A stretch of 64,000 nt of DNA from Microbacterium hydrocarbonoxydans (GTDB lineage: Bacteria > Actinomycetota > Actinomycetes > Actinomycetales > Microbacteriaceae), in NCBI RefSeq assembly GCF_904831005.1, contig NZ_LR882982.1, forward strand, positions 2,914,001 to 2,978,000, written 5' to 3'. The position numbers and the translations under genes are program-made. The notes below the pieces were generated by a model. That model did no database searches. It had not been told where the DNA came from and saw only the letters and a program-made list of their open reading frames with translations. Shown here one piece after another: positions 1,268 through 52,768 of the stretch. The number at the start of each line of letters is the position of its first letter. Position 1 is the first letter of the stretch.

Positions 1268-1303
1268 GTGTCCAGTGTGGCACCGCCGCATGCCGGATCG
1301 GTG

Positions 1304-22923: not shown

Positions 22924-22954
22924 CGACACGAGCCGGGGTCTCAGCGACCCTGAC

Positions 22955-22998
22955 GCAGAAAGACGCCGCTCCCCTCGCCGGGAGCGGCGTCTTTCTGC
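22955..22998. terminator. strong hairpin terminator after the ABC exporter
   Basis: A perfect 19-bp stem: GCAGAAAGACGCCGCTCCC (22955-22973) and its complement (22980-22998) around a six-base loop CTCGCC. It includes AAAGA/TCTTT ends and can act in both directions between convergent units. Confidence 0.88.
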
Positions 22999-23006
22999 GC
23001 CACGCT

Positions 23007-23050
23007 GGCAGTGCGTCACGGCGGCAGTGCGTCGAGGCCGGCAGTGCGTC
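23007..23050. repeat. three direct copies of GGCAGTGCGTC
   Basis: GGCAGTGCGTC occurs at 23007-23017, 23023-23033 and 23040-23050, spaced 16 and 17 bases, just behind the terminator and running into the 3' end of the carboxypeptidase gene. Confidence 0.8.
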
Positions 23051-24584: not shown

Positions 24585-24674
24585 CTCCTCACGGTACCGA
24601 ATCAGAGCCGGGATTCCGGGCGCCGCATCAGGAGAAGACGCGAGTGTCGGCACTGGGTATGATCGACAGCACAA

Positions 24675-24762
<88 letters not shown>

Positions 24763-24770
24763 GCATTCAC

Positions 24771-25439
24771 ATGAGCACATCCACGTCCGGATCCAGCACG
24801 GAATCGGCATCCGCAGCAGCCACCGCGGCTCGCGCATCGAAGAGGCTCGGCCGTCCCGAACTGTGGCGCTGGCGGGTCGTCGACATCGTCGTGGCGAGTG
24901 TCATCGCGGTGGCCTGTGCCGTGATCTTCCTGCTCTGGAACGTCGGCTACGAGGTTCCGAGCACCTTCCTCACCCCGCTCCTTCCCGGCGTGCAGGGTCT
25001 GCTCGCAGGCCCGTGGCTCATCGCGGGAGTGCTCGGCGGGCTCATCATCCGCAAGCCCGGCGCGGCGCTCTACACCGAGCTGGTCGCTGCGATCATCTCG
25101 GCACTGGTCGGCAACGCCTGGGGTCCGCTCACGATCGTCTCGGGTCTGGTGCAGGGCCTGGGCGCGGAGCTGATCTTCCTCCTCTTCCTCTACGGCGTAT
25201 GGCGGTTGCCTGTCGCGATGCTGGCGGGCGCCGGTGCGGGCCTCGCGTGCGGCATCAACGACCGCATCCTCTGGTACGCGGGCGCCGACACGCTCTTCAC
25301 GACCGTCTACATCGTCTCGACCACCATCTCCGGTGCCGTGATCGCCGGGCTGGGCGCGTGGCTGATCGCTCGGGGTCTCGCTGCGACGGGAGCCCTGAGT
25401 CGGTTCGCCGCCGGCCGCGAGGTCACCGCACGGGTGTGA
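24771..25439 (+). CDS. ykoE: thiamine (HMP) ECF transporter S component, YkoE
   Basis: 222 residues. After a Ser/Ala-rich N-terminus the protein has about six membrane helices (VVDIVVASVIAVACAVIFLLWN onward), with GPWLIAGVLGGLIIRKPGAALYTELVAA and GNAWGPLTIVSGLVQGLGAELIF typical of YkoE. S components bind the vitamin; YkoE is assigned to thiamine or its pyrimidine precursor in the YkoEDC system. The upstream TPP riboswitch supports this. The stop overlaps the GTG of the ATPase gene. Confidence 0.94.
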   Translation: MSTSTSGSSTESASAAATAARASKRLGRPELWRWRVVDIVVASVIAVACAVIFLLWNVGYEVPSTFLTPLLPGVQGLLAGPWLIAGVLGGLIIRKPGAALYTELVAAIISALVGNAWGPLTIVSGLVQGLGAELIFLLFLYGVWRLPVAMLAGAGAGLACGINDRILWYAGADTLFTTVYIVSTTISGAVIAGLGAWLIARGLAATGALSRFAAGREVTARV

Positions 25440-39007: not shown

Positions 39008-39067
39008 GGGGTGGGGGTGCTGGGGCTGTGCTGGGCTGGGGATGGGATGGGTGCGTCGGTGGGTTTT

Positions 39068-39340
39068 CAGGTGGCACCTGTTGTCGGTATGGGGACGTCG
39101 TGGCGGCATGAGGTGTCATATGAAGGGGGCGTGGCTGTTCAGGTGGCACCTGTTGTCGGTATTGGGGCGTCGTGGCGGCATGAGGTGCCATATGAAGGGG
39201 GCGTGGCGTTTCAGTTGGCACCTGTTGTCGGTATTGGGGCGTCGTAGCGGCATGAGGTGCCACATGAAGGGGGGCGTGGCTGTTCAGGTGGCACCTGTTG
39301 TCGGTATTGGGGCGTCGTGGCGGCATGAGGTGCCACATCG
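39068..39340. repeat. 72-bp tandem array with internal palindromes, noncoding
   Basis: CAGGTGGCACCTG-type starts at 39068, 39140, 39212 and 39285 give three full 72/73-bp units and a partial fourth. Each unit has the palindrome CAGGTG-G-CACCTG (degenerate in unit 3) and a second copy AGGTGCCA that pairs with TGGCACCT ~30 bases away, so every unit could fold. Because 72 is divisible by three, several frames stay open, but the ORFs are translations of the repeat. It fills the gap between tetR and the DUF4407 gene. Confidence 0.9.
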
Positions 39341-39411
39341 CGACAGCAGGCGGATGCCGGAGAGAGGCGGAAACACAGGGTTCGTCCACGTTTTCCACAG
39401 GCGACGTTTCG

Positions 39412-41040: not shown

Positions 41041-41056
41041 GTTCCGGGCGCGGGTG

Positions 41057-41165
41057 TTTGTGCCGCTCGTGGTCGTTCCGGTCGCACTTTGTGCCGCTCG
41101 TGGTCGTTCCGGTCGCACTTTGTGCCGCTCAAGCGCGAGCCGAACGGCACGAACTGCGACGGGAA
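41057..41165. repeat. intergenic palindromic element A with 31-bp direct repeats
   Basis: TTTGTGCCGCTCGTGGTCG-type units start at 41057, 41088 and 41119 (31-bp period). The last unit pairs with a right arm CGGCACGAACTGCGACGGG (41145-41163), so GTTCCGGTCGCA...TTTGTGCCG forms a ~25-bp imperfect stem. The right arm is almost identical to those of the elements at 47747, 51237 and 52662. Confidence 0.85.
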
Positions 41166-41226
41166 CTGGAACGGGCGGGGTCGAGACCGGTCACGGAGAT
41201 CCGGGCCCGACGTCTGCCACGGCCGG

Positions 41227-41232
41227 TAGCGT
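41227..41232 (+). promoter_or_regulatory. -10 element, leaderless promoter
   Basis: TAGCGT, six bases, ATG 41239 of the aldo/keto reductase gene; no ribosome site. Confidence 0.55.
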
Positions 41233-41238
41233 GGTCGC

Positions 41239-42252
41239 ATGGTCAACTATCGCTATCTCGGTAACAGCGGTCTCAAGGTCTCTGAGATCACCTACGGCAA
41301 CTGGGTCACGCACGCTTCGCAGGTCGGCGACGACGCCGCCGTCAAGACTGTGCACGCGGCGCTCGACGCAGGCATCACCACGTTCGACACGGCCGACACC
41401 TACGCGAACACCGCGGCAGAGGTCGTGCTCGGCAAAGCGCTCGAAGGGCAGCGCCGCGAGAGCCTCGAGATCTTCACGAAGGTCTACTTCCCGACCGGCC
41501 CCAAGGGTCCGAATGACACCGGGCTGAGCCGCAAGCACATCCTCGAATCGATCAACGGCTCACTGAAGCGACTCGGCACCGACTATGTCGACCTCTACCA
41601 GGCGCACCGCTTCGACTACGAGACCCCGCTCGAAGAGACGTTCCAGGCCTTCGCCGACGTCGTTCGTCAGGGCAAGGCGCTCTACATCGGCGTCTCGGAG
41701 TGGACGGCTGAGCAGCTGCGGGAGGGCCACGCGCTCGCGAAGCAGCTCGGCGTGCACCTGATCTCGAACCAGCCGCAGTATTCGATGCTGCACCGCGTGA
41801 TCGAAGGCAAGGTCGTGCCCGCATCCGAGGAGCTCGGTATCTCGCAGATCGTCTGGTCGCCCATGGCGCAGGGCGTGCTCTCGGGCAAGTACCTGCCCGG
41901 TCAGCCGGTGCCCGAGGGGTCGCGCGCCACCGATCCGCACAGCGGATCGGACTTCATCAAGAGCTTCCTGCAGGATGACATCCTCACCGCGGTGCAGAAG
42001 CTCAAGCCGATCGCCGAGCAGGCAGGCCTCTCGATGCCGCAGCTCGCTATCGCCTGGGTGCTGCAGAACCCGAACGTCGCCGCAGCTCTGGTCGGAGCCT
42101 CGCGCCCCGAGCAGCTTGCCGACACGGTCAAGGCTTCGGGCGTGACGCTCGACGCCGACACGCTCGCTGCGATCGACACCGCACTGGGCGACACGGTCAA
42201 CCGCGATGCCGAGGCCACGTACTCGGTGTCGCCGAAGGCGCGCCTGGTCTGA
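41239..42252 (+). CDS. aldo/keto reductase (Kv-beta/YhdN-type)
   Basis: 337 residues. Catalytic residues in AKR positions: Asp50 and Tyr55 (FDTADTY), Lys81 (IFTKVYFP) and His123 (YQAHRFD). The NADP-binding end reads LVGASRPEQLADTVKA. GVSEWTAEQL and SPMAQGVLSGKYLPG place it with the voltage-gated K+ channel beta-like AKRs. It reduces aldehydes or ketones with NADPH; substrate unknown. A strong terminator follows. Confidence 0.92.
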   Translation: MVNYRYLGNSGLKVSEITYGNWVTHASQVGDDAAVKTVHAALDAGITTFDTADTYANTAAEVVLGKALEGQRRESLEIFTKVYFPTGPKGPNDTGLSRKHILESINGSLKRLGTDYVDLYQAHRFDYETPLEETFQAFADVVRQGKALYIGVSEWTAEQLREGHALAKQLGVHLISNQPQYSMLHRVIEGKVVPASEELGISQIVWSPMAQGVLSGKYLPGQPVPEGSRATDPHSGSDFIKSFLQDDILTAVQKLKPIAEQAGLSMPQLAIAWVLQNPNVAAALVGASRPEQLADTVKASGVTLDADTLAAIDTALGDTVNRDAEATYSVSPKARLV

Positions 42253-42258
42253 CGGCTC

Positions 42259-42305
42259 GCATGATGAAGGCCGCCGTCCGTCAGGGGCGGCGGCCTTCGT
42301 CATGC
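42259..42305. terminator. bidirectional hairpin terminator
   Basis: Arms of 21 bases (42259-42279 and 42285-42305), GCATGATGAAGGCCGCCGTCC against its complement with two G-U pairs. It lies between the convergent aldo/keto reductase and ABC permease genes. Confidence 0.82.
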
Positions 42306-42320
42306 GCCCCATGGCGATCT

Positions 42321-42375
42321 CGAGTCGCGCACTTGGCAGTTCTTCGGGGCGCGTTTCTGCTAAGTGCGCGATTCG
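42321..42375. repeat. intergenic palindromic element (TCGCGCACTT type)
   Basis: Left arm CGAGTCGCGCACTTGGCAG (42321-42339) and right arm CTGCTAAGTGCGCGATTCG (42357-42375) form a 19-bp stem with two G-U pairs around a 17-base loop. It lies directly behind the terminator, so it is not needed for termination. Confidence 0.75.
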
Positions 42376-42379
42376 AAAG

Positions 42380-43285
42380 CTATTCTTTGACGGCGCCGGC
42401 GGTCAGGCCCTGCACGATCCAGCGGCTCGCGAGTGCGAACATCACCATGGTCGGCAGGATCGTCAGCACGGCTGCGGCGCTCATCGAGCCCCAGTCGATG
42501 TTGAACGTCGAGATGAACCCGTTCAGCGCCGACGGCACGGTGCGGTTCTCGTCGGTGTTCATCAGCACGACCGACAGGAACAGCTCGTTCCAGCAGTTGA
42601 CGAAGTTGAAGATGAAGGCCGCGATGATGCCCGGGGTCATCACCGGCACGAGCACCCGGAACAGCGCGCCGAAGCGCGAGCATCCGTCGATCATCGCCGC
42701 CTCTTCGAGCGCGTCGGGCACGTTCTCGAAGAAACCGCGCAGCATGACCGTGGAGAACGGGATGCAGACCGCGATGTACACGAGGATCAGGCCGGGCTTG
42801 GTGTCGACGAGGCCCAGGTCGGTCATCATCGAGTACAGCGGGCCCAGCGCGATGAACGCGGGGATCATCTGCGTGAGCAGGAACGCCACCAGCACCGTCC
42901 CCTTGCCGCGGAACTCGAAGCGCGCGATCACATAGGCGCTGAGCAGAGCGATGAGCGTCGCCACCGCGCCCGCGATCGTCGCCACCAGAGCCGAGTTGCC
43001 GAGGAAGACCCCGAACGAGCTCTGCTCGAACAGGCTCACGTAGTTGTCGAGCGACGGCTCGCTGGGCCAGTACTCGATCGGGAAGGAGTTGATCGTGCCC
43101 GGCGACTTGAACGACGTCAGCGCGATCCAGTACAGCGGGAAGAGCGTGATGACGAGCCAGAGGGCGAGACCGACGACGCGCACGATGCCGCCGACCGAGA
43201 CCTTGCGCTTCGGACGCGGTGCCTTCGCGATGTCGGGGACGGTGAGACGCCGGGTCTCGGTGACCGTGGTTCCGGTGATGGTCAT
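42380..43285 (-). CDS. sugar ABC transporter permease, MalG type (system 1)
   Basis: 301 residues, six membrane helices. The EAA coupling motif is EEAAMIDGCSRFGALFRVLVPVMTPGI, and the C-terminus GLTAGAVKE is typical of CUT1 MalG permeases. It pairs with the MalF-type permease upstream (four-base overlap) and the binding protein. No ATPase is encoded in the operon, so a shared MsmK-like ATPase is probably used. Confidence 0.94.
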   Translation of the reverse strand: MTITGTTVTETRRLTVPDIAKAPRPKRKVSVGGIVRVVGLALWLVITLFPLYWIALTSFKSPGTINSFPIEYWPSEPSLDNYVSLFEQSSFGVFLGNSALVATIAGAVATLIALLSAYVIARFEFRGKGTVLVAFLLTQMIPAFIALGPLYSMMTDLGLVDTKPGLILVYIAVCIPFSTVMLRGFFENVPDALEEAAMIDGCSRFGALFRVLVPVMTPGIIAAFIFNFVNCWNELFLSVVLMNTDENRTVPSALNGFISTFNIDWGSMSAAAVLTILPTMVMFALASRWIVQGLTAGAVKE

Positions 43286-44232
43286 CGCTGGACCCTCCGC
43301 ATCGCCATGAGGTAGAACGCGCAGAACACGAACAGGAACGCGACCACGATGAGTCCGATGGCGCTCGCGATGCCGTAGTTGCCCTGCTGCGTGTAGTTGA
43401 TCATCCAGGTCGTGATGATGTGGGTCTGGTTCGCCGGCCCGCCGTTGGTCATCGCGTAGATGATGTCGGGGAAGTTGAAGATCCAGATGATGCGCAACAG
43501 GATCGTCAGCAGCAGCGTCATCGAGATGTACGGGATGATGATCGAGAACAGCTGACGCACCTTGCCTGCGCCGTCGAGGCTGGCGGCCTCGAGCATCTCG
43601 TCAGGCACCGACTGGAGAGCCGCGAGGATCATGATCGCGAAGAAGGTCACGCCGTACCAGATGTTGGCGACGATGACCGCGAACATCGCGAGCTTCGGAT
43701 CCGCCAGCCAGGGCAGCGGGGCGTCGATCAGGCCGGCCTTCATGAGCAGGTCGTTCACGACGCCGAACTCGGCGTTGAACATCCAGCGGAACAGCATCCC
43801 GATCAGGAAGCCCGAGACGGCCCACGGGAAGAACACGAGCGCCTGGTAGAGCCCGCGGAAGCGGAAGCGCTTGCGCAGAGCGAGCGCGATCAGGAAGCCG
43901 ATCACGAGCTGCGGCACGAGCGAGCCGACGACCCACAGGACGGAGTTCCAGGCGACGATCGGGAAGGCCGGGTCCTGGAAGACGGTGACGAAGTTGTCGA
44001 AACCCACCCACGGGGTGGAGGTGAGATCCCACAGGTTCCAGTCGTGGAAGGCCATGCGTGCGCCCTGCAGCATCGGCCAGTAGGTGAACCAGCACACGAA
44101 CACGATCGCCGGGGCCATGAAGGCCAGCAGCGTCAGCGCGTGGCGGCCACGGAAGGGGCGGCGCCGGCGGGATGCCGGGGAGGCCCCGACGGCGGTGCCG
44201 ACGGAGCCCCCTTCGAGAGTGGTCCGGGTCAC
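43282..44232 (-). CDS. sugar ABC transporter permease, MalF type (system 1)
   Basis: 316 residues with six helices. EEAASL-DGA in MLEAASLDGAGKVRQLFSIIIPYIS is the EAA loop. The N-terminal helix follows a basic segment RRRRPFRGRH. It is three bases after the binding-protein stop and overlaps the MalG permease, confirming one operon. Confidence 0.94.
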   Translation of the reverse strand: MTRTTLEGGSVGTAVGASPASRRRRPFRGRHALTLLAFMAPAIVFVCWFTYWPMLQGARMAFHDWNLWDLTSTPWVGFDNFVTVFQDPAFPIVAWNSVLWVVGSLVPQLVIGFLIALALRKRFRFRGLYQALVFFPWAVSGFLIGMLFRWMFNAEFGVVNDLLMKAGLIDAPLPWLADPKLAMFAVIVANIWYGVTFFAIMILAALQSVPDEMLEAASLDGAGKVRQLFSIIIPYISMTLLLTILLRIIWIFNFPDIIYAMTNGGPANQTHIITTWMINYTQQGNYGIASAIGLIVVAFLFVFCAFYLMAMRRVQR

Positions 44233-44235
44233 GGA

Positions 44236-45549
44236 TCAGCCCATTTCCGCAGCGTACTTCTCGGTCCAGAAGGTGTCCCACGACTCGAGCAGCTCGGTGG
44301 TCGACATGTTGCCGAGCAGCACGTTCTGCACGTCCTGGTCGGACTTCTGGATCCACTCCGTCCACCAACTGACACCCCGCGGCTGCTGCACGTTGACGTA
44401 CGTCTCGGGGTCCTCGGTCATCGTGACGTAGCTGGTCCACGGGCCCGAGGAGTAGAACTCGTCATCCGCGGCCTCCGTGATGATCGGCACGAGGCTGTTG
44501 GCCTGCGCGAACTCGGTGGCCGGCTCGGCCGACGAGAGGAACTCGACGAGCTTGACCGCGGCATCCTGGTGCTCGCTGTTCTCTGCGACGCCCCAGCCCG
44601 CGACAGCCAGCGGCTGCGCGGCCTTGCCCGACGGGCCGACGAGCAGCGGGGCGGTGTCCCACTGATCCTCGGTCAGGGAGGAGTCCTGCACGGTCGCGAT
44701 GACCTCGGGGTCCTGCAGCAGGAACGCCGTGGTGCCGTTGGTGAAACCAGCGACCATCTCGGGGTAGCCCCACGACACGGCGGACGGCGGGGACGCCTCT
44801 GTGAAGAGGTCGAAGTAGTCGTCGACGGCTTCCTGCGCCTCGGGAGCGGCGAAGATCGTCGAGCCGTCCTCCATCAGGAAGGCGTCGTCGACGTCGAGGC
44901 CGTCGATCGTGTAGGCCTCGATCGCCGCGACCACATTGCTGTTCGCGTTCTGGCCGCCGCGGAACGCGTAGCCGTAGATGTTCTTCGCAGGGTCTTGGAT
45001 GGCGCCGGCCTGCTCGAGCAGATCCTTCCAGCTGTGCGGCGGGCCGTCGAAGCCCGCCTCTTCGACGAGGTCGGTGCGGTAGAACAGCGAGAGGCCGTAG
45101 AAGCCGTACGGCACGAAGTAGCTCTTGCCGTCTGCGGCCACGGACGCGGACTGCGCGTTGTCGGTGAGGGCATCCCAGCCGTCCCACTTCTCGAGGTCGC
45201 CCGAGATGTCGTGCAGCCAGCCGTTGTTCGCGAACGGGCCGACCGTGATGTCGCGGACCTCGAGCACGTCGACGCCCTTGCCCGACTGCAGCATCTGCTG
45301 GATCTTCGCGTCGGCCTGCTCGGTGGGCGGCGAGACGAGCTTGACCTTGATGTCGGGGTTCTCCTTCTCGAAGTCGTCGAGGAGTCCGCGCAGCAGGTCG
45401 GTGCGCGCCGGATTGGTCAGGCTCTCGACCATCTGCAGCGTGACGGTGCCGTCGGCGGACTCGCCGCCGCCTGCGGAACAGCCGGTGAGCGCGAGTGCGG
45501 CGACGGTGCCGATTCCCGCGGCGGTCGTCAAGATTCTGTTGTTCTTCAC
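44236..45549 (-). CDS. sugar-binding lipoprotein of ABC system 1
   Basis: 437 residues from GTG 45549 (AGAGG upstream). A lipoprotein signal with basic VKNNR, a hydrophobic core and lipobox LALTGC (Cys24) anchors it to the membrane. The mature part is a CUT1 extracellular solute-binding protein: LLDDFEKENPDIKVKLV, DVLEVRDITVGPFANNGWLHD, YGFYGLSLFYRTDLVEEAG. The sugar is unknown. A C-rich leader of 61 bases separates it from the aminotransferase gene. Confidence 0.94.
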   Translation of the reverse strand: MKNNRILTTAAGIGTVAALALTGCSAGGGESADGTVTLQMVESLTNPARTDLLRGLLDDFEKENPDIKVKLVSPPTEQADAKIQQMLQSGKGVDVLEVRDITVGPFANNGWLHDISGDLEKWDGWDALTDNAQSASVAADGKSYFVPYGFYGLSLFYRTDLVEEAGFDGPPHSWKDLLEQAGAIQDPAKNIYGYAFRGGQNANSNVVAAIEAYTIDGLDVDDAFLMEDGSTIFAAPEAQEAVDDYFDLFTEASPPSAVSWGYPEMVAGFTNGTTAFLLQDPEVIATVQDSSLTEDQWDTAPLLVGPSGKAAQPLAVAGWGVAENSEHQDAAVKLVEFLSSAEPATEFAQANSLVPIITEAADDEFYSSGPWTSYVTMTEDPETYVNVQQPRGVSWWTEWIQKSDQDVQNVLLGNMSTTELLESWDTFWTEKYAAEMG

Positions 45550-45610
45550 GAGGTGCCTCTCAGTTGGTGATGGTGGTGGGTCGGGTGGTGGGCGGAGGGG
45601 GTGGGTCGGG

Positions 45611-46846
45611 TCAGGAGATGATGACGGAATCGGCGGTGCGGATGCCGGCACGGCGGAGGATCTGCGGGATGCAGCGCTCGACGAAGGCCTCGAAGTCGGA
45701 GGCCTCGGTGTAGAGGTGTGCCGACAGGCGGAAGTAGCCGACGCCGCGGAAGCTGGTGAACGCGGTCTCGACGCCGGTCTCGTCGAGCAGGTCCATGCGC
45801 AGAGCGTCGGCCTCTTCTCGGGTCGAGCCGAGTCCGAGCGGCAGGCGCACGAGCCGCATCGAAGGCACGGGGGAGGGCAGTGGCGTCAGGGGGTCTTCGT
45901 CGCCGTAGGGGCGCAGACCCTCGGCGATGATCTCGGCCCCGGCATCCGCCATCTGCGCCATCGCCTGGCGGGCGTCGTGCCACCCGAACTCGGACTCGAT
46001 GAACTCGATCGACGCCGGGGTGGCGAGATAGGTCGTCGCGTCGATCGTGCCCTGGGTGTCGAAGCGCTCGGGGTAGGGCTCGTTCGCCGCCCACGAGTCG
46101 ATGAGCGGCCACAGATCGTCGCGGTCGGGGGCGTTCGTGACGAGCAGGGCGGAACCGCGCGGTGCGCAGGGCCACTTGTGCAGGTTGCCGAACCACCAGT
46201 CGCCGCCGGCGACCGCGGCGGCGTCGGCGACGAGACCGGGAGCATGGGCGCCGTCGACAAGGGTGCGGATGCCCCGTTCCGCTGCGAGCTCGGCGATGCG
46301 GCGGGTCGGCAGCATGCGCGCGGTCGGTGAGGTGATCTGGTCGACCACGATCAGACGGGTGGCCGGAGTGAGCGCGTCGGCGAAGCGCTGCACGACCTCG
46401 TCGTCGGAGGCGAGCAGCGGCAGCTCGACGGCGCGGACGGATGCTCCGAAGCGGCGGGCCAGGCGCTGCGCGCCCATCGTGATCGCGCCGTACCCCTGGT
46501 CTGTGACGAGGATCTCGTCGCCGCGCTCGAGGTGCAGGGCGTTGTAGACGACGGTCGCGGCGGCTGAGGCGTTCGGGACGAAGACGCTGTCTTCGGCATG
46601 GGCGCCGAGGAACGGAGCCGTGCGCTCGCGAGCGTCGCGCACCCGCTCGGCGATGCGGGGGAACCACTCGACCGGGCTGAGGTCGGCGCGCCGCCGCAGC
46701 GCATCCTGCTGCTCGACGACCGCCGTAGGCACTGCGCCGAACGAGCCGTGGTTCAGGTGGATCACGTCGGGATCGAGCGGCCACGCATCACGGGCTCGGA
46801 TGCCGGAGTTCAGCGTGAGCGGTGCGGGGAAGAGTGGTGCGGGCAT
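45611..46846 (-). CDS. class-V aminotransferase-fold PLP enzyme (isopenicillin-N-epimerase-like)
   Basis: 411 residues from ATG 46846; GAGGA before it favours this over 46882. HLNHGSFGAVP at the N-terminus, VFVPNASAAATVV, LVDGAHAPG (Asp198) and PLP lysine Lys224 in GNLHKWPCAPRGSA define the isopenicillin-N-epimerase/CefD-like group of cysteine-desulfurase folds. It is the first gene of the sugar ABC operon, an unusual partner that hints at an amino sugar or amino-acid-derived substrate (inference). Divergent GntR upstream. Confidence 0.9.
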   Translation of the reverse strand: MPAPLFPAPLTLNSGIRARDAWPLDPDVIHLNHGSFGAVPTAVVEQQDALRRRADLSPVEWFPRIAERVRDARERTAPFLGAHAEDSVFVPNASAAATVVYNALHLERGDEILVTDQGYGAITMGAQRLARRFGASVRAVELPLLASDDEVVQRFADALTPATRLIVVDQITSPTARMLPTRRIAELAAERGIRTLVDGAHAPGLVADAAAVAGGDWWFGNLHKWPCAPRGSALLVTNAPDRDDLWPLIDSWAANEPYPERFDTQGTIDATTYLATPASIEFIESEFGWHDARQAMAQMADAGAEIIAEGLRPYGDEDPLTPLPSPVPSMRLVRLPLGLGSTREEADALRMDLLDETGVETAFTSFRGVGYFRLSAHLYTEASDFEAFVERCIPQILRRAGIRTADSVIIS

Positions 46847-46873
46847 CGGTCCTCGTCGGTGCAGTGGGTCGAG

Positions 46874-46884
46874 TTGTTGCACAA
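46874..46884. promoter_or_regulatory. FadR-type GntR operator, site 1
   Basis: TTGTTGCACAA matches the FadR-subfamily consensus TNGTNNNACNA, 28 bases upstream of the aminotransferase start. Confidence 0.65.
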
Positions 46885-46936
46885 CTTTGCCACACAGCTT
46901 CCGAAATGGCTACGAAATAGCGAGTATGAAACATAG

Positions 46937-46947
46937 TTGTCATACGA
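46937..46947. promoter_or_regulatory. FadR-type GntR operator, site 2
   Basis: TTGTCATACGA also fits TNGTNNNACNA and lies within the AT-rich centre of the divergent promoter region, 63 bases from site 1. GTATGA/TCATAC around it adds a dyad (46924-46945). Confidence 0.55.
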
Positions 46948-47010
46948 ATTTGATGCGGGGTCTGCGTCCGACAGACTCTCAGAGGGATCGGCGGTGTCAG
47001 GAGGATGACG

Positions 47011-47700
47011 ATGAGCGCACTGGACACGGCACTGCACGGGCTGCGCACGCTGATCGCGGATGGCGAGCTGCGTCCCGGCGACCGTCTGCCGAGCGAGGGC
47101 GAGCTGTGCGAGACGCTGGGCGTCTCACGCGGATCGCTGCGAGAAGCCATCCGCATGCTGGCGGCCCTCGGCGTGCTCGAGACCCGCCATGGCTCCGGCA
47201 GCTACGTGGGTGAGCTTCGTGCCGCCGACCTGATCGGCAGCCTCTCTCTCACGGTCGGACTCCTGCCCATGGCCGGGGTGCTTGAGCTGACGGAACTTCG
47301 CCGGGTGCTCGAGCCTCATGCCGCCGCGCTCGCCGCAGCCCGCATCGATGCGGCGACGATCGAGACGCTCAGCGGCGTGCTCGACGAGATCGAGGGCAGC
47401 GACGACTTCGAGGCCCACTCGCGGCTCGACCACGACTTTCACATGACGATCTCGCGAGTCGCGGGCAACGACGCCCTCACGAGCCTGATCGACGTGCTGC
47501 GCTCACGCTCGCGGGCCTATCGGATCCCGGATGCCGGAGATGCTGCCGAACTCAAGCTGCATTCGGATGCCGGGCATCGGGCCATCCTCCGCGGACTCGC
47601 GGCGGCGGATCCGGTGGCCGCGTCGGCTGCCGCATCCGCCCATGTCGCCCAGACCGAGTACTGGGTGCGTCGGTATACCGATACCGACGAGTCGGTCTGA
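47011..47700 (+). CDS. FadR/FCD-type GntR transcriptional regulator
   Basis: 229 residues. ATG 47011 is chosen over 47005 because AGGAGG (46999-47004) lies six bases before it and touches the other. Winged helix: LRTLIADGELRPGDRLPSEGELCETLGVSRGSLREAIRMLAALGVLETRHGSGSYV; FCD domain with metal-binding residues in RLDHDFHMTIS and HSDAGHRAIL. It most likely controls the divergent aminotransferase/sugar ABC operon through the two TNGT-N3-ACNA sites. Confidence 0.92.
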   Translation: MSALDTALHGLRTLIADGELRPGDRLPSEGELCETLGVSRGSLREAIRMLAALGVLETRHGSGSYVGELRAADLIGSLSLTVGLLPMAGVLELTELRRVLEPHAAALAAARIDAATIETLSGVLDEIEGSDDFEAHSRLDHDFHMTISRVAGNDALTSLIDVLRSRSRAYRIPDAGDAAELKLHSDAGHRAILRGLAAADPVAASAAASAHVAQTEYWVRRYTDTDESV

Positions 47701-47746
47701 CTCACCGCGCTCGTCTCGCGGTTCCGGTCTCACCGGGCGGTTGAGC

Positions 47747-47807
47747 GTTCCGGTCGCAGTTGGTGCCGTCCAGATCGGTGCTCGGCGGCACGAAGTGCGA
47801 CGGGAGC
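47747..47807. repeat. intergenic palindromic element B
   Basis: Left arm GTTCCGGTCGCAGTTGGTGCCG (first part, from 47747) and right arm CGGCACGAAGTGCGACGGG (from 47786) form a long stem around a ~17-base loop, between the convergent gntR and ACT genes. Sequence family shared with elements A, C and D. Confidence 0.85.
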
Positions 47808-47824
47808 TCTGGTCGATGGGGCAG

Positions 47825-48340
47825 TCAGGCGACCGTGATGTCGACCTGGATCTCGCTCGCGATGCGCTCGAGATCGCGACGCAGCGCGTCGAGGTCGACG
47901 GATGCCGGAACGCGCGCGATCACGGATGCCTCGAACAGACGACCACCCGCCATCGCGGCGTCCCGGGTCTCGGTCGCCAGCTCTTCGATGCTGAGGTCAT
48001 GCGCGTTCAGCACGGAGGACACCTCCCGGACGATGCCCGAGCGATCATTGCCGAGCACCCGGATCTCGAGCATCCGCTCGTCGTCGCCCGGCTGCGCGGC
48101 GGCGCCGGTGAGCACCGCGAGGGTGAGGAGTCCCTGGCCCTGAAGCTCTCGCAGGGCGCTCTGCAGCTCCTCCGAGTGTTCGGCGGCGACGGAGACCTCG
48201 ATCACACCTGCGAAGGTTCCGGCGAGCTCGGCGAGCGAGCTGTTCTCCCAGTTGCCGCCGTGCGCATCGACGACATCGGCGACGGCTGCGACGAGACCGG
48301 GGCGATCGGCACCCGCGACAGTGAGGATGAGAGTAGTCAT
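47825..48340 (-). CDS. two-ACT-domain protein (GcvR-like)
   Basis: 171 residues from ATG 48340. Two ACT domains: TTLILTVAGADRPGLVAAVADVVDAHGGNW and LEIRVLGNDRSGIVREVSSVLNAHDLSIEEL, each with the D-R-P/S-G ligand loop. No catalytic domain, so a small-molecule-binding regulator, as in glycine-cleavage repressor-like proteins. TACGCT six bases before the ATG indicates leaderless transcription. The neighbours do not reveal its target. Confidence 0.88.
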   Translation of the reverse strand: MTTLILTVAGADRPGLVAAVADVVDAHGGNWENSSLAELAGTFAGVIEVSVAAEHSEELQSALRELQGQGLLTLAVLTGAAAQPGDDERMLEIRVLGNDRSGIVREVSSVLNAHDLSIEELATETRDAAMAGGRLFEASVIARVPASVDLDALRRDLERIASEIQVDITVA

Positions 48341-48346
48341 GCGGCC

Positions 48347-48352
48347 AGCGTA
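48347..48352 (-). promoter_or_regulatory. -10 element, leaderless promoter
   Basis: TACGCT, six bases, ATG on the minus strand before the ACT-domain gene. Confidence 0.55.
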
Positions 48353-48401
48353 GCCGTCACGCCCGGAGCACCTGCCGGCGCATCGCCCGACACGGAGCTG
48401 T

Positions 48402-48424
48402 TGTTTTGAATCATTCAAAACAAG
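48402..48424. promoter_or_regulatory. Fur/PerR-like 10-bp-arm palindrome
   Basis: Perfect inverted repeat with arms TTGTTTTGAA and TTCAAAACAA around TCA; the core TTTGAAT-C-ATTCAAA has the 7-1-7 geometry of Fur/PerR boxes. It is strikingly AT-rich for this genome. TACGAT (48427-48432) lies just downstream as a possible -10, so bound protein would block transcription of the genes at 48513-49148. Confidence 0.75.
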
Positions 48425-48443
48425 GTACGATGGAGGGGCGACG

Positions 48444-48473
48444 TGGTGCCGGGGTTGCAGCCCCGGCACCACT
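48444..48473 (+). promoter_or_regulatory. leader hairpin before gene 48513
   Basis: Perfect 12-bp arms GTGGTGCCGGGG and CCCCGGCACCAC with loop TTGCAG, between the Fur-like palindrome/-10 and the start codon. It could be an attenuator or mRNA-stability element. Confidence 0.6.
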
Positions 48474-48512
48474 GTCCGTGAAGCACCACCATCCCTGACA
48501 GAGGAGGCTCGC

Positions 48513-48806
48513 ATGAGTCACGAACACGCCAAAGATAGTCCATCCCGATCACTGCCGATGGATCAGTCGATGGGGCGTGCGGCGCGTGAGCGCATCGTTC
48601 GCGAGGCGCTCGAGCGCATCGACGGAGCGCCGGCGCCGACGGTCGACATGATGCAGGCTGCGATGGGATCCGAGGCGCAGATCCGCCTCGTCCACGACGT
48701 CGTCCGCGCGTATCTCGACGAACACGACCTCGCCGACACCAGGGCATGGGCGAAGGTGCTGCGGGAGCGCACGCAGAAGTCTGACGCGTCAGCGAGTGTG
48801 AGCTGA
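48513..48806 (+). CDS. small hypothetical protein under the Fur-like operator
   Basis: 97 residues. GAGGAGG precedes the ATG. The sequence is largely helical and charged (RAARERIVREALERIDGAPAPTVDMMQAAMGSEAQIRLVHDVVRAYLDEHDL), soluble, without cysteines or a recognised domain. It is the first gene of a two-gene unit with the downstream ORF starting right after its stop. The dedicated AT-rich palindrome suggests metal or oxidative-stress control. Confidence 0.7.
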   Translation: MSHEHAKDSPSRSLPMDQSMGRAARERIVREALERIDGAPAPTVDMMQAAMGSEAQIRLVHDVVRAYLDEHDLADTRAWAKVLRERTQKSDASASVS

Positions 48807-49148
48807 ATGAGCATGGCGTCGATCGCACGTCTCCCGGTCTCCATGCTTGGCGGAGGGGGCAGGGTGCAGCGCCTCGCCCAATCGGAACTGCTCGCCATGC
48901 CTCCCCGCATCACACACCCTTCGAGTGTCGTCGGACGCATCGAATCGAGCGGTCTCGGTCGTCCGAGCTACGTCATGATCGAGTGCGCGGGCGACCGGAT
49001 TCCGGACGCGCTCGTTCTCGAGTACGGCGGTGAGGATGCCGAGCGGAAGACATCGGCGCGGGTGTGGATCCGCGCGAGCGTCAGTGGAAGCATCCCGTCG
49101 TACGTCGTGAGCAGCGACAGCTCTTCGGGCGGCTACGTCACCGCGTGA
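48807..49148 (+). CDS. small hypothetical protein
   Basis: 113 residues; ATG directly follows the stop of the previous gene, without a clear ribosome site, suggesting coupled translation. Third codon positions are GC-biased like real genes. SYVMIECAGDRIPDALVLEYGG and ARVWIRASVSGSIPSYVV look like beta strands. No family recognised. It converges on the Cds1-like gene. Confidence 0.55.
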   Translation: MSMASIARLPVSMLGGGGRVQRLAQSELLAMPPRITHPSSVVGRIESSGLGRPSYVMIECAGDRIPDALVLEYGGEDAERKTSARVWIRASVSGSIPSYVVSSDSSSGGYVTA

Positions 49149-49158
49149 GGGCAGGTCA

Positions 49159-50214
49159 TCAGACCCAGTCGCCTGTCTCGAGGAAGTGATCGAGCCGAGC
49201 GCGGTGCGGGGCGAGATCCCAGCCCTGTGCCGCGACCCACTCGTCGGCGAAGTACGTGCCGGCGTAGCGGATGCCGCTGTCGCAGATGAGCGTGACGATG
49301 CTGCCGGTCTCGCCGCCGGCGCGCATGCGGGCGATCAGCTGGAAGGCTCCGTACAGGTTGGTGCCGGTCGAACCGCCGGCCCAGTGCAGGGTGCGCTCGC
49401 GCAGCATCCGGATCGCGGCGATCGAGCCGGCATCCGGCACCCGGATCATCTCGTCGATCACGCTCGGCACGAATGACGCTTCGACCCGCGGCCGGCCGAT
49501 GCCCTCGATGCGGCTCGGGCGGCCGACGGGCGGGTCGACCGTGCCGGCCCATCCGTCGTAGAAGGCCGAGCCCTCGGGGTCGACGACCGCGATCTGGGTC
49601 TCATGCCGCCGGTACTTCACGTAACGGCCGAAAGTCGCGCTGGTTCCGCCGGTGCCCGCCCCCACCACGATCCAGCGCGGGACGGGATGCCGCTCCTGCG
49701 ACAGCTGGCTGAACACGCTCTCGGCGATGTTGTTGTTGCCGCGCCAGTCGGTCGCGCGCTCGGCATAGGTGAACTGGTCGAGGTAGTGGCCGTGGCACTC
49801 GGAGGCCAGGCGCTGCGCCTCGGGAGACATGTCTTCGGCGCGATCGACGAAGTGGCAGCGTCCGCCGTAGAACTCGATGAGGTCGATCTTCTCCTGGCTC
49901 GTCGACCGAGGCACGACGGTCACGAACGGCAGGCCGAGCATCCGGGCGAAGTACGCCTCGGAGACGGCCGTCGACCCGCTCGACGATTCGACGAGAGTCG
50001 ACTGCTCGGTGATGCGGCCGTTCACGAGCCCGTACAGGATCAGCGAACGAGCCAGCCGATGCTTGAGCGACCCGGTGGGGTGCACGGACTCGTCTTTGAG
50101 GTAGAGATCGATGCCCCACTCGGGCGGCAGCGGAAAGAGATGAAGGTGCGTGTCGGCGCTGCGGTTGGCATCGGCTTCCAGCAGGGCGATCGCGGTGCTG
50201 GTCCAGTCGCTCAT
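49159..50214 (-). CDS. PLP-dependent cysteine desulfhydrase / cysteine-synthase fold (Cds1-like)
   Basis: 351 residues. Fold-type II PLP enzyme: Lys51 in [26 protein letters not shown] substrate loop, [16 protein letters not shown] phosphate-binding glycines. Length and sequence resemble mycobacterial Cds1, which converts cysteine to H2S, pyruvate and ammonia in redox defence, and differ from CysK. Substrate assignment is by family resemblance. TACGCT six bases before the ATG suggests a leaderless transcript. Confidence 0.87.
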
Positions 50215-50220
50215 GCTTCG

Positions 50221-50226
50221 AGCGTA
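50221..50226 (-). promoter_or_regulatory. -10 element, leaderless promoter
   Basis: TACGCT, six bases (GCTTCG read on + strand), then the ATG of the Cds1-like gene on the minus strand. Confidence 0.55.
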
Positions 50227-50234
50227 ACGCGCCG

Positions 50235-51152
50235 CTACTTGGCGGTGTATCCGCCCTCACCCGTCTCGCCGTCGTAGGTGAATACCTTGTCTTCGAGGGT
50301 GATCTCTATGTCGTCGCCGAGTGGCTGCTGGGCGAGCAGGCGCTCTTCGAGCATCGTCATCCGCTGCTCGTACTCGTCGGCGGTGGCGGCATCGACGCCC
50401 CAGATGGTCGCGACCTTCATGTCGGTGAGGAAATAGAGGAATGCGCTGACCGCTGTGCGATTGAACTCGGAGTCGGGGATGCTCTGCCACAGTTCGCCGG
50501 AATCGCGGAGCCGCTTGTACTCGTCGATTTTCTGCTCGAGCCGGTCGGCGATGGCCGCCCCGGCCTCGGGATCGGCGGGGTCGCCGGACGGCTCGGACGG
50601 CTGCTCGGACTGCTGGCCCTCGGGCGTGACGGAGCTCGGGCTCGGAACCGCCACCGGCGGAGGATCCGAGCCCAGAATCAATCCGACCACGACGGCGACG
50701 GCCACCACCCCGAGCACGACCATGCCGCCGACGACGCCGAGGATCACGGGCAGCCGACGGCCGCTGGACCTTGCGGACGGCGGCGCTGAGGACGCGAGCG
50801 GATAGGACGCTGCGCCGTATGCACCCGGCTGCTGGCCTCCCGGCTGCGGGTATCCGGGCTGCGGGTAAGCGGAGGGCGGGTATGCGGAGGGCGGGTAAGC
50901 GGGCGGTGGGGTCCCGGGCTGCGAACTCCCGGGCTGCGGGCTCGCGTAGGGCGGCAGCGCAGTGGGGTGGCCGCCCGGCGACGGCGGAGGCTGCCACGGC
51001 GGCGGTGGCCCAGCCGGTGAGCTCAACGACGGAGCGAGCGGGACGGCCGTCGACGACTCGGTGACAGATGCCGAGGCAGGAGCCAGCGGCACGACGGGCT
51101 CGGGGGGAATGACGTGTTCGGGCTGCCCTGCAGCATCCTGCTCGTTCGTCAT
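50235..51152 (-). CDS. proline-rich single-pass membrane protein
   Basis: 305 residues. Residues ~30-120 are a Pro/Gly/Tyr-rich cytosolic tract with repeats of YPPSAYP and QPGYPQPGG; ~130-160 one membrane helix ([28 protein letters not shown]); then a Ser/Pro/Glu linker and a ~110-residue extracytoplasmic domain with helical [17 protein letters not shown]. The layout is common for actinobacterial DUF4190-like or secretion-associated proteins, but no domain was recognised outside the membrane. GGGGGGAGAG precedes the ATG. Confidence 0.78.
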
Positions 51153-51236
51153 CGACGCTCTCCCCCCGGTGCGTGACGCCGCGTGCGCCCTCGAGAAAGG
51201 TTAGTAGGCCGCACCGACATCCGCGGGCCGCATCCT

Positions 51237-51297
51237 GTTCCGGTCGCAGTTCGTGCCGCGCGATCTCGTGCGCAACGGCACGAACTGCGACGGGAGC
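51237..51297. repeat. intergenic palindromic element C (best copy)
   Basis: Left arm GTTCCGGTCGCAGTTCGTGC plus CG (51237-51258) and right arm CGGCACGAACTGCGACGGGA plus GC (51276-51297) pair over ~21 bases with one or two mismatches around a 17-base loop. It lies between two minus-strand genes. Confidence 0.88.
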
Positions 51298-51345
51298 GCG
51301 CCGGGTGAGCTCCGGGCGTGCTCCGGGTGAGCTCCGGGCGCGCGT

Positions 51346-52314
51346 TCAGGCGCCGAGTGCGCGGCGAACGCGGGCGACCAACTCGGCGGGTCTCGCGAAG
51401 AGGGTCGCGGACACCTCGATGACGGTCCACCCGGCATCGCGCAGGGCAGCCAATCGCTCGACATCTTCGGCATATCGGTCGCTGTGCAGAAGACTCTGAT
51501 ACTCGATCGCGATCCTCTCGGCGGGGTACGCGAGGTCGACGCAGGCGATGAACCTGCCGGCGGAGTCGTAGACGTCGTGATTCAGGCGCGGTTCCGGCAA
51601 GCCCGCGATGACGAGGTGGCAGCGGACCTTGGACTCACGGGGCGACCACGAGTCCTCGCGGATCAGCTCGAACGCGTCGCGAAGGCGCTGGATGCCGGTT
51701 CGACGCCCTGCGGACATCATGGCCCGCAGCTCGGCTCGCGTCGTGAGCGGGCGGCGTCCGGCATGTGGTCTCCCGGGGCCGTCGCGCCAGACCCGACACA
51801 GGTGATCGCCGAGCGCGACGAGGTCGAGCACCTCCCAGGCGCCGAGCTGCGCCCATGCGGTGGCCGGAGTCGCGACCCTCACGCCGCCCCGGCCCGTGAA
51901 CGTTCTGCTCGCCGGATGCGCTCGGTGCGCCGCGACTCCGCCCGCGCGGACCAGAGCGCCCGTGCCCACTGTGCTCACGTGGACGTCGAGCGTCATGCCG
52001 TCGACCGCACGGCCGCGGTGCGTGGCGAGCGGCAGGGGCGCTCCCATCAATGCCACTGCGGACTCGTGGCTGAAGAACTGGTTCGCGCCGAGCCGCGGAG
52101 TGTAGAGCGTGGCGCGGATTCGGCGCGCCTTCGCCTGCCGCTCGTAGACGTCGTCGTCAGTGAGAGGTGCGAGGGGCTCGGCGTTGCGGACGCCGCGAAA
52201 AGGCGTGTCGAGGTCGGAGCGCCGGAGTCTTCCGCGCGTGACGCCGGCGGTCGCGGCATCCTGCACCGAGAACCTCGGTCCGAGTCCTTCGGGTAGCGGT
52301 CGTGGTCGTCCCAT
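51346..52314 (-). CDS. DUF559/Vsr-like endonuclease-fold protein with AbiEi-like N-terminus
   Basis: 322 residues. The N-terminal half (VQDAATAGVTRGRLRRSDLDTPFRGVR, LGANQFFSHESAVALMGAPLP) resembles the winged-helix part of actinobacterial AbiEi-like proteins. The C-terminal part (SWSPRESKVRCHLVIAGLPEPRLNHDV, ACVDLAYPAERIAIEYQ, DVERLAALRDAGWTVIEVSA) follows the PD-(D/E)xK order E...D...ExQ, with Gln where Lys is usual. Such solo proteins are numerous in Microbacteriaceae and of unknown role; no toxin gene is adjacent. Confidence 0.75.
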   Translation of the reverse strand: MGRPRPLPEGLGPRFSVQDAATAGVTRGRLRRSDLDTPFRGVRNAEPLAPLTDDDVYERQAKARRIRATLYTPRLGANQFFSHESAVALMGAPLPLATHRGRAVDGMTLDVHVSTVGTGALVRAGGVAAHRAHPASRTFTGRGGVRVATPATAWAQLGAWEVLDLVALGDHLCRVWRDGPGRPHAGRRPLTTRAELRAMMSAGRRTGIQRLRDAFELIREDSWSPRESKVRCHLVIAGLPEPRLNHDVYDSAGRFIACVDLAYPAERIAIEYQSLLHSDRYAEDVERLAALRDAGWTVIEVSATLFARPAELVARVRRALGA

Positions 52315-52768
52315 CGCTCTACCGTGTCAGTCCGGCTTGCGCGCCGGTTCGGCCTCCACAGGTGCAGTCAGGCGGGCTCTGGGTCGCAGGTGTGGCGGGT
52401 CGGCCGAGGGGACGGGCGGTGCCGGCGGTGGCGCAAGCACGGAAGCGGAGCGGTGTGCGGCGGGTGGGGGCGGCACGAAGTGCACGGACGGGTGCCGGCG
52501 GTGGGGGGCAATGCGACGGAAGGTCGGCCTGGTGGGGGTGGGCGGCACGAAGGACGGAGGGTGCGGGTGGCGGATGAAGTGACGGAAGGTCTGTGTGAAG
52601 GGGCGGGTGGGGGGCATGAAGGACGGAGCGGTGCCGGCGGGTGCCGGCAGAATGGAAGGAAGGTTCGGGTCGCAGTTGGTGTCGGTGTGGCGGGTGTGGG
52701 GCGGCACGAAGTGCGACGGAAGGTTGCGGGCGGCGGGCGGGCGGGCGCGTGCGCCGCCGCGCCACGCG
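52315..52768. repeat. 454-base noncoding region holding element D and a degenerate half-palindrome array
   Basis: GGCGGCACGAAG-like copies followed by GACGGA recur at ~52471, ~52545, ~52572 (GGCGGATGAAGTGACGGA), ~52611 (GGGCATGAAGGACGGAG) and ~52701. The last, with left arm GGTTCGGGTCGCAGTTGGTG (52662 on), forms a complete palindrome (52662-52727) of the A/B/C family. The strand is extremely G-rich, and open frames are products of base bias. Confidence 0.75.

What the first reader, a model, noticed from the sequence alone, without database searches (positions are those of the whole stretch)
41057..52727. Dispersed palindromic element family (A, B, C, D) in this genome
The same ~20-base arms, GTTCCGGTCGCA...TTNGTGCCG and CGGCACGAANTGCGACGGG, recur at four intergenic sites (41057-41165, 47747-47807, 51237-51297, 52662-52727) with divergent loops. 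This is a repetitive extragenic palindrome of unknown role; loci A and D also carry extra half-copies, implying amplification. No transposase is seen.
Basis: seen in the sequence. Interest (0 to 1): 0.75.

Follow-up and report, generated by a model that had tools for sequence, protein, structure and literature searches.

The report
Nuclease gene with its own repeats
A small mirror-image DNA repeat scattered behind genes in a bacterium of the Microbacterium group turns out to bracket a gene that looks like a DNA-binding nuclease, and related nuclease genes carry their own private versions of the repeat, which looks like a so far undescribed kind of repeat-and-enzyme partnership.

Summary
The four palindromes are real and belong to a family of 26 intergenic sites in this Microbacterium-like genome. 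The core is a 61-bp dyad (two 22-bp inverted arms, 17-bp loop); extra half-sites lie outside it, mostly at 31 or 41-42 bp. In 38 of 49 homologous genes read, the upstream and downstream flanks carry matching repeats, against 0 of 196 and 3 of 200 control genes; the window's own gene falls just below the threshold because site D has decayed. The repeat changes with the nuclease: genes at least 60% identical mostly share it, same-genome paralogs rarely do (2 of 25 pairs). The genome has four such genes; three of their repeats lie in the window (F1 = A-D; F2 at 42318; F3 at 39066-39341). F3 has 40 half-sites here and occurs in 5 of 23 other genomes, four of which have an F3-flanked nuclease. RAYT/Y1 transposases were found in 0 of 20 genomes. 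Best reading: a REPIN/RAYT-like system built on a different enzyme class. The association is well supported; binding, cutting and mobilisation are inferred.

The parts
41041..41096 (.). Site A, lateral half-sites on the left: full half-copy 41075-41096 at 31 bp from the dyad arm, plus a truncated/decayed copy at 41041-41074 directly behind the stop codon of the DUF4407 gene
   Evidence: truncated copy by eye
41106..41166 (.). F1 dyad A, 61 bp (22-17-22)
   Evidence: array absent from the same intergenic region in G001, G187, G195, G303, G205, G022, G188; present in G265 and G161 with a similar loop
47747..47807 (.). F1 dyad B, 61 bp, between convergent GntR/FCD and ACT-domain genes
51237..51297 (.). 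F1 dyad C, 61 bp, 48 bp beyond the stop codon of the nuclease gene (downstream flank)
51346..52314 (-). Cognate gene: AbiEi-like region (residues 1-219, 51658-52314) fused to a Vsr/DUF559-like nuclease domain (residues 222-322, 51349-51651); E227, E271, H277, D284 invariant in 49 of 49 homologs, residue 260 D in 40 and E in 9
52663..52723 (.). F1 dyad D, 61 bp, decayed (14 of 22 arm positions complementary), upstream flank of the nuclease gene, 348 bp before its ATG and 45 bp behind the AXE1-like gene
39066..39341 (.). F3 site: four tandem dyads of 59 bp (21-17-21) at 72-73 bp spacing; the same repeat flanks the paralogous gene at G000:C1:3066626-3067558
42318..42378 (.). F2 dyad, 61 bp; the same half-site flanks the paralogous gene at G000:C1:3027224-3028174
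42258..42306 (.). Separate classical terminator-like hairpin next to the F2 dyad (context, not part of the system); kept in relatives that lack the dyad

Best explanation
The palindromes are the dispersed cognate sites of a DNA-binding nuclease encoded between sites C and D. The protein's AbiEi-like N-terminal part reads one 22-bp half-site per monomer. A pair of monomers sits on the 61-bp dyad, and further monomers on the helically phased lateral half-sites 31 or 42 bp (three or four turns) outward. The Vsr/homing-endonuclease-like C-terminal domain nicks or cuts at the dyad, probably when it is extruded as a hairpin or cruciform or is single-stranded during replication. Repair or replication then spreads, loses or tandemly extends the sites. 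The two dyads that bracket the gene are its home copies; the upstream one probably also serves as autoregulatory operator. The pair works like RAYT and REPIN, but with an unrelated enzyme, and it exists as several parallel nuclease-repeat pairs per genome. SHOWN: family, geometry, bracketing of the gene family, co-variation of repeat with nuclease, presence/absence at orthologous sites, fold similarity. INFERRED: binding, cutting, spreading, autoregulation.
Confidence: 0.55

Rival explanations
1. Binding-site network without mobilisation: the AbiEi-like part binds the dyads for a host purpose (autoregulation at its own gene, insulation or marking of gene ends, or titration/self-marking of a defence nuclease), and the nuclease domain acts elsewhere. 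Sites spread by ordinary duplication and selection.
For: AbiEi relatives are autoregulators on 23-bp inverted repeats (PMC7319586, passages); helical phasing of lateral half-sites argues for protein bound on double-stranded DNA; 26 of 26 counted sites are intergenic and 13 of 16 in tandem contexts lie nearer the 3' end; PADLOC gives weak ZorE (26 of 37 members) and AbiEi (10 of 37) matches.
Against: Most sites lie behind genes, not at promoters; one genome carries several unrelated nuclease-repeat pairs; copy number ranges from the flanking copies only (F3 in G051) to 40 half-sites; related species gain or lose sites cleanly, which looks selfish rather than regulatory.
Confidence: 0.27
2. Ordinary intrinsic terminators or mRNA 3'-end hairpins whose shared sequence is incidental.
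For: Hairpins at gene ends; at site B 25 of 26 relatives printed have a predicted fold of -42.7 kcal/mol or stronger (no shuffle control); in G224 and G022 the half-sites cap a hairpin that looks like a terminator (by eye).
Against: A separate conserved terminator lies beside the F2 dyad; no T-run at A-D; fixed 61-bp span; half-sites at 31/42 bp; private repeats bracket one gene family.
Confidence: 0.1
3. MITE or REPIN family moved by an unrelated transposase (including a RAYT not recognised here); the nuclease genes are merely passengers between two copies.
For: Inverted ends, fixed span, empty sites.
Against: Y1_Tnp PF01797 absent in 20 of 20 genomes while 5 of 14 control genomes ring; repeat sequence tracks nuclease sequence over 49 genes, which a passenger should not do. 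Other transposase classes were not searched.
Confidence: 0.06
4. DNA-uptake-sequence-like dialects spread by transformation.
For: Genome-specific dialects, inverted pairs at gene ends.
Against: About 100 half-sites rather than thousands (the latter recalled), 26 of 26 counted sites intergenic, and tied to a nuclease gene.
Confidence: 0.02

Closest known systems
REPIN / RAYT (REP-associated Y1 transposase) systems, e.g. Pseudomonas fluorescens SBW25 (PMC3116915, passages read)
   Same: Inverted pair of conserved ends at a fixed distance, variable spacer kept able to form a hairpin with compensatory changes, extragenic, tandem clusters, enzyme gene accompanied by the repeat, repeat type tied to enzyme type
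   Different: Enzyme is a predicted AbiEi-Vsr fusion, no Y1 protein in 20 of 20 genomes; half-site is a 22-mer without a palindromic core; lateral half-sites at 31/42 bp; four pairs in this genome
AbiEi antitoxins (S. agalactiae AbiEi, M. tuberculosis Rv2827c)
   Same: Fold of residues 3-219; those proteins bind 23-bp inverted repeats, two or four in a row, with private sequence (PMC7319586, passages)
   Different: Here fused to a nuclease domain; no nucleotidyltransferase toxin recognised next door; repeats are dispersed over the genome and arms are 17 bp apart (3 or 13 bp there)
Vsr-like endonucleases: E. coli Vsr, homing endonuclease I-Bth0305I, DUF559 / MTES_1575
   Same: C-terminal domain fold and conserved acidic residues; 37 of 37 members of alignment A1 match DUF559, most weakly
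   Different: Fused to an AbiEi-like region and tied to a multi-copy dyad; not reported as such in the papers searched

Membership tests
REPIN / RAYT | Two conserved ends in inverted orientation at fixed distance with hairpin-forming variable spacer | tested here: met
   61-bp span; variable stem segment pairs 6.03 of 7 positions against 5.17 (sd 0.09) when arms are re-dealt, slid controls 1.7-3.5, 66 dyads
REPIN / RAYT | Each REP has its own palindromic core (most with a GTAG or CGTC tag) | tested here: not met
   Longest internal stem of the 22-bp half-site is 3 bp, equalled by 91% of shuffles; neither tag at its ends (definition from PMC3733652 and PMC3116915 passages)
REPIN / RAYT | Cognate Y1 transposase (RAYT, PF01797) in the genome | tested here: not met
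   0 of 20 genomes, 5 of 14 controls positive
REPIN / RAYT | Enzyme gene bracketed by its own repeat, repeat type tracks enzyme type (works-like test) | tested here: met
   38 of 49 genes; permutation p 0.001 - for the AbiEi-Vsr gene, not for a RAYT
Vsr/DUF559-type PD-(D/E)XK nuclease | Vsr fold with conserved acidic residues | tested here: met
Vsr/DUF559-type PD-(D/E)XK nuclease | DNA cleavage | not testable with these tools
   no assay
AbiE type IV toxin-antitoxin | AbiEi fold, binds 23-bp inverted repeats | tested here: inconclusive
AbiE type IV toxin-antitoxin | Adjacent AbiEii nucleotidyltransferase gene | tested here: not met
   At the window locus the two neighbours are an AXE1-like hydrolase and a protein without Pfam match
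Intrinsic terminator | Short G+C-rich hairpin followed by a T-run | tested here: not met
   No T-run at A-D (by eye); separate terminator beside F2
MITE / non-autonomous IS copy | Copies share interior sequence and have target-site duplications | tested here: not met
   Loops unrelated between sites (by eye); no duplication seen at the one site with filled and empty alleles examined closely

The most novel reading that the evidence does not exclude
AbiEi-Vsr fusion proteins, frequent and unexplained in Microbacterium and present in Arthrobacter, are the motors of a second, independently evolved class of REPIN-like elements: each protein recognises a private 22-bp half-site, cuts dyads of it, and thereby spreads and removes them, so that genomes carry several competing nuclease-repeat lineages whose dialects turn over between species.
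Probability: 0.5. Interest if true: 0.93.

Novelty: categorically new. Interest (0 to 1): 0.85.

Why it matters
REP-like repeats are among the oldest known bacterial repeats, and the enzyme class tied to them in the papers I read is the Y1 transposase. A second, unrelated enzyme class with its own dispersed dyads would show that the partnership evolved more than once, would give a function to a large group of proteins now called DUF559, MTES_1575 or 'AbiEi-domain' proteins, and would provide many nuclease-site pairs with readable specificity, which makes both the mobility question and the recognition code directly testable.

Tried and rejected
Rejected: RAYT-driven REPs. Simple terminators. 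DUS-like signals (copy number, intergenic only). A common neighbour gene of all F1 arrays: in an all-against-all comparison of ORFs from the 21 stretches the widest families reach 6 of 21, and their window members lie on transporter-type genes (types judged by eye). At that point the nuclease looked unrelated, because only 2 of 21 stretches hold a homolog; the link appeared when homologs in other genomes were located.

Side findings kept out of the main claim: a 31/42 asymmetry (12 of 14 two-sided arrays in G000 have 31 bp on one side and 41-44 on the other, 2 have 41-42 on both, none 31/31; my count by eye, and five of the 14 are tandem copies at two sites); an origin-side bias (KS p 0.012 for 26 F1 sites in G000, 0.0002 for 8 tandem-bearing sites in G161, 0.014 for another family in G198; F3 p 0.20).

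Led nowhere: Rfam (one TPP riboswitch only); NCBIfam; the first search of 38 relatives with the arm (7 of 38, one of them a single hit outside the genus). Distribution beyond the genus was therefore tested only on plasmids.

Literature: searches in the held PMC library listed no paper whose title or abstract start links AbiEi, DUF559 or Vsr-like proteins with REP-like repeats. Passages were read in PMC3116915, PMC3733652, PMC6006769 and PMC7319586; the DUS paper PMC3630211 only as a listing with abstract start. Subscription papers and preprints were not searched.
Full report
OBSERVATION. The four palindromes A-D are present as described. Each is a dyad of 22-bp inverted arms (right-arm consensus CGGCACGAASTGCGACSGGAAC) around a loop of exactly 17 bp, 61 bp in all. 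In the window, 8 matches to the right arm at up to 3 mismatches stand against 0.38 expected, and 0 of 100 shuffles reach 8. In the whole genome (G000, 3.72 Mb, one contig; window = 2914001-2978000; Microbacterium-like by its protein relatives) the strict arm-gap-arm pattern gives 19 dyads against 0 for the reversed pattern. A laxer scan of the window and 20 stretches around the hits finds 26 sites, all 26 intergenic by a codon-usage gene call: 16 between genes in tandem, 7 convergent, 3 divergent. Two lone matches inside genes were excluded. In 13 of the 16 tandem cases the site lies nearer the 3' end of the upstream gene than the 5' end of the downstream one (counted by hand; sign test p 0.011).

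GEOMETRY. Many sites carry extra half-copies outside the dyad, in the orientation of the nearer arm. 16 of 21 genomes searched had such pairs; the listing was cut and shows 150 pairs from 15 of them. 139 of 150 spacings are 30-32 or 40-43 bp, with peaks at 31 (54) and 42 (49; 41 has 23), although 19-49 bp was allowed; without G000 it is 97 of 105. The spacer sequences differ between sites, so the two distances, one helical turn apart, are what is kept. Across the genus a pattern with the same ends and free gap is found in 69 of 366 genomes, up to 31 dyads per genome. The reversed control gives single hits in 15 genomes, so the 16 genomes with one hit prove little; the listed dyads are nearly all 49 bp between the inner GTCGCA ends. 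The inner stem segment varies, yet left and right arms match: 6.03 of 7 positions pair, against 5.17 (sd 0.09, maximum 5.53 in 2000) when arms are re-dealt, and 1.7-3.5 when slid (66 distinct dyads). A fixed length and a hairpin-forming but otherwise free interior is what Bertels and Rainey describe for REPINs (PMC3116915, passages).

TURNOVER AT ORTHOLOGOUS SITES. The intergenic region of site B was extracted from 30 loci including the own; 3 had inserts and were not read. Of the 26 relatives read, 25 have a predicted fold of -42.7 kcal/mol or stronger there, but of other sequence families; only G265 shares G000's motif. Two of these families were counted in 20 genomes each: GGGGTGGGTCGGCG occurs 17 and 15 times in G198 and G157 and 0-2 times in the other 18; TGTGCRGATCGGG 18 times in G001, 9 in G000, 6 in G187, 0-2 in the other 17. 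At site A the array is present in G000, G265 and G161, with similar loops but different lateral half-sites (31 bp left in G000, 42 in the others); it is absent in G001, G187, G195, G303, G205, G022 and G188, replaced by another hairpin in G241, and not judged in five genomes with 0.9-2.4 kb inserts. At 42318 a dyad of a second family (F2, TTTCGAATCGCGCA ends, again 61 bp) lies between a classical terminator-like hairpin and a stop codon in G000, G161 and G192; G205, G265, G187, G001, G324, G303 and G195 have the hairpin and no dyad; nine more distant genomes have other hairpins there. G205 is the sister of G000 and G324 of G192 in a tree of eight syntenic proteins (support 0.995 and 0.983, other nodes weaker), so clean losses or repeated gains must be assumed. 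No target-site duplication is visible.

THE ENZYME. RAYT-type transposases (PF01797) were found in 0 of 20 genomes searched while 5 of 14 control genomes ring. The gene between C and D (51346-52314, minus, 322 codons, intact) has no Pfam match at 1e-3, but all 37 members of an alignment of its homologs match DUF559 (best E 1.7e-6, the window protein 0.049) and 34 match MTES_1575. Homologs were sought in 38 genomes: 77 hits in 33 of them. Their coordinates fell next to F1 dyads in several genomes (G022, G220, G152, G057, G236, G265). I therefore read the flanks of 49 homologous genes in 30 genomes, 26 of the 27 hits at >=50% identity and 23 of the 50 others, chosen by hand. In 38 of 49 the 400 bp upstream and 300 bp downstream share a repeat at or above the 95th percentile of 2302 mismatched pairs; 0 of 196 control genes (orthologs of 14 gene types) do, and 3 of 200 genes called in the window and the F1-bearing stretches of G000 do, one of which simply lies between two F1 arrays. 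Under a strict test (57-66 bp, ends complementary) 24 of 49 have dyads on both sides, against 0 of 245 shuffles; the upstream one ends 15-166 bp (median 66, n 32) before the assumed start codon and the downstream one begins 0-148 bp (median 9, n 31) after the stop. The window's own gene scores 14.5, below the threshold of 16, because its upstream dyad D has decayed.

THE REPEAT FOLLOWS THE ENZYME. Flank similarity rises with protein identity: 18 of 18 pairs at >=70% identity match, 81% of 48 at 60-70%, 37% of 67 at 55-60%, 9% at 45-55%, 0-3% below 45%; rank correlation 0.30, permutation p 0.001, but not significant within pairs below 45% (p 0.19). Descent of orthologous loci may add to this, although at site B intergenic DNA has diverged beyond recognition between genomes whose flanking proteins are about 80-97% identical. 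Of 25 same-genome paralog pairs 23 do not match. G000 has four homologs: 2965349-2966314 with F1, 3027224-3028174 with F2, 3066626-3067558 with F3 (TGGCACCTGTTGTCG), 3112256-3113146 with a fourth repeat. F1, F2 and F3 all occur as dispersed dyads in the window. F3 was counted in 24 genomes: 40 half-sites in G000, 2, 4, 2 and 8 in G051, G187, G177 and G244, 1 in G329, 0 in 18. Four of these (G000, G051, G187, G177) had been picked because one search showed F3 at their nuclease: 4 of 4 against 2 of 20, p 0.0014; in G244 the hits bracket a homolog (C9:213110-214018), seen only afterwards. In G051 the only two half-sites are those at the gene. For F1, a homolog of >=50% identity is present in 15 of 18 F1-bearing and 5 of 20 F1-negative genomes (p 0.0004, not corrected for kinship). 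Exceptions: G133 and G132 have F1 dyads and no homolog, G300 only a distant one; in G186, G161 and G014 the homologs read carry other dialects. Outside the genus, the only three hits in the plasmid collection, all Arthrobacter (30-33% identity), are bracketed by matching repeats of their own (scores 23.5, 23.5, 33.0).

MECHANISM. I take the dyads to be the private sites of this protein: the N-terminal part binds half-sites, two on a dyad and more at phased lateral sites, and the C-terminal domain nicks or cuts there. That activity, through replication or repair, would spread dyads to other gene ends, remove them, and extend arrays by half-site units. Location behind stop codons would be where insertions do least harm. 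Only the association, geometry, co-variation, presence/absence and fold are shown; everything about activity is inference. The main rival is a binding-site network without mobility.

COMPARISON. The logic (enzyme gene accompanied by its repeat, repeat type tied to enzyme type, hairpin-capable pairs of fixed length) is that of REPIN/RAYT. Membership fails on the enzyme (no Y1 protein) and on the REP itself (half-site without palindromic core; no GTAG/CGTC tag, PMC3733652 passages). Nor is it an AbiE toxin-antitoxin operon (no toxin gene recognised next door). The searches in the held library listed no paper that by title or abstract describes such a pair; other libraries were not searched. Hence the novelty rating, with the reservation that a critic could call it a new variant of the REPIN idea.

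Noticed in passing
window 24667-24776 (+): TPP riboswitch aptamer (Rfam RF00059, 58.1 bits, gathering score 54.3).
   Followed up: no
window 1290-1817: 33-bp tandem repeat, about 11 registers, so possibly in-frame in a repeat protein.
   Followed up: no
window 22944-23009: Strong inverted repeat with 30-nt arms and 6-nt loop, looks like an ordinary intrinsic terminator.
   Followed up: no
G000:C1:3041512-3041600 and 3328034-3328114 (L237, L238): A further repeat family (TGTGCRGATCGGG) with 19-bp tandem spacing at the first place, also in G001 (18) and G187 (6); its nuclease, if any, was not identified.
   Followed up: partly
G000:C1:2469510-2470313 (L077 5411-6214): A gene without Pfam match lying between two large F1 arrays whose flanks are highly similar (score 77.5); not listed as a homolog of the nuclease.
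   Followed up: partly
G000, G161, G198: Repeat sites are commoner on the origin side of the chromosome and scarce near the terminus (dnaA; KS p 0.012 in G000, 0.0002 in G161, 0.014 for another family in G198; F3 not significant, 0.20).
   Followed up: partly
G000 two-sided F1 arrays: In 12 of 14 arrays with lateral half-sites on both sides one side is spaced 31 bp and the other 41-44, none is 31/31 (by eye; five of the 14 are tandem copies at two sites). Reminiscent of a two-spacer rule; unexplained.
   Followed up: partly
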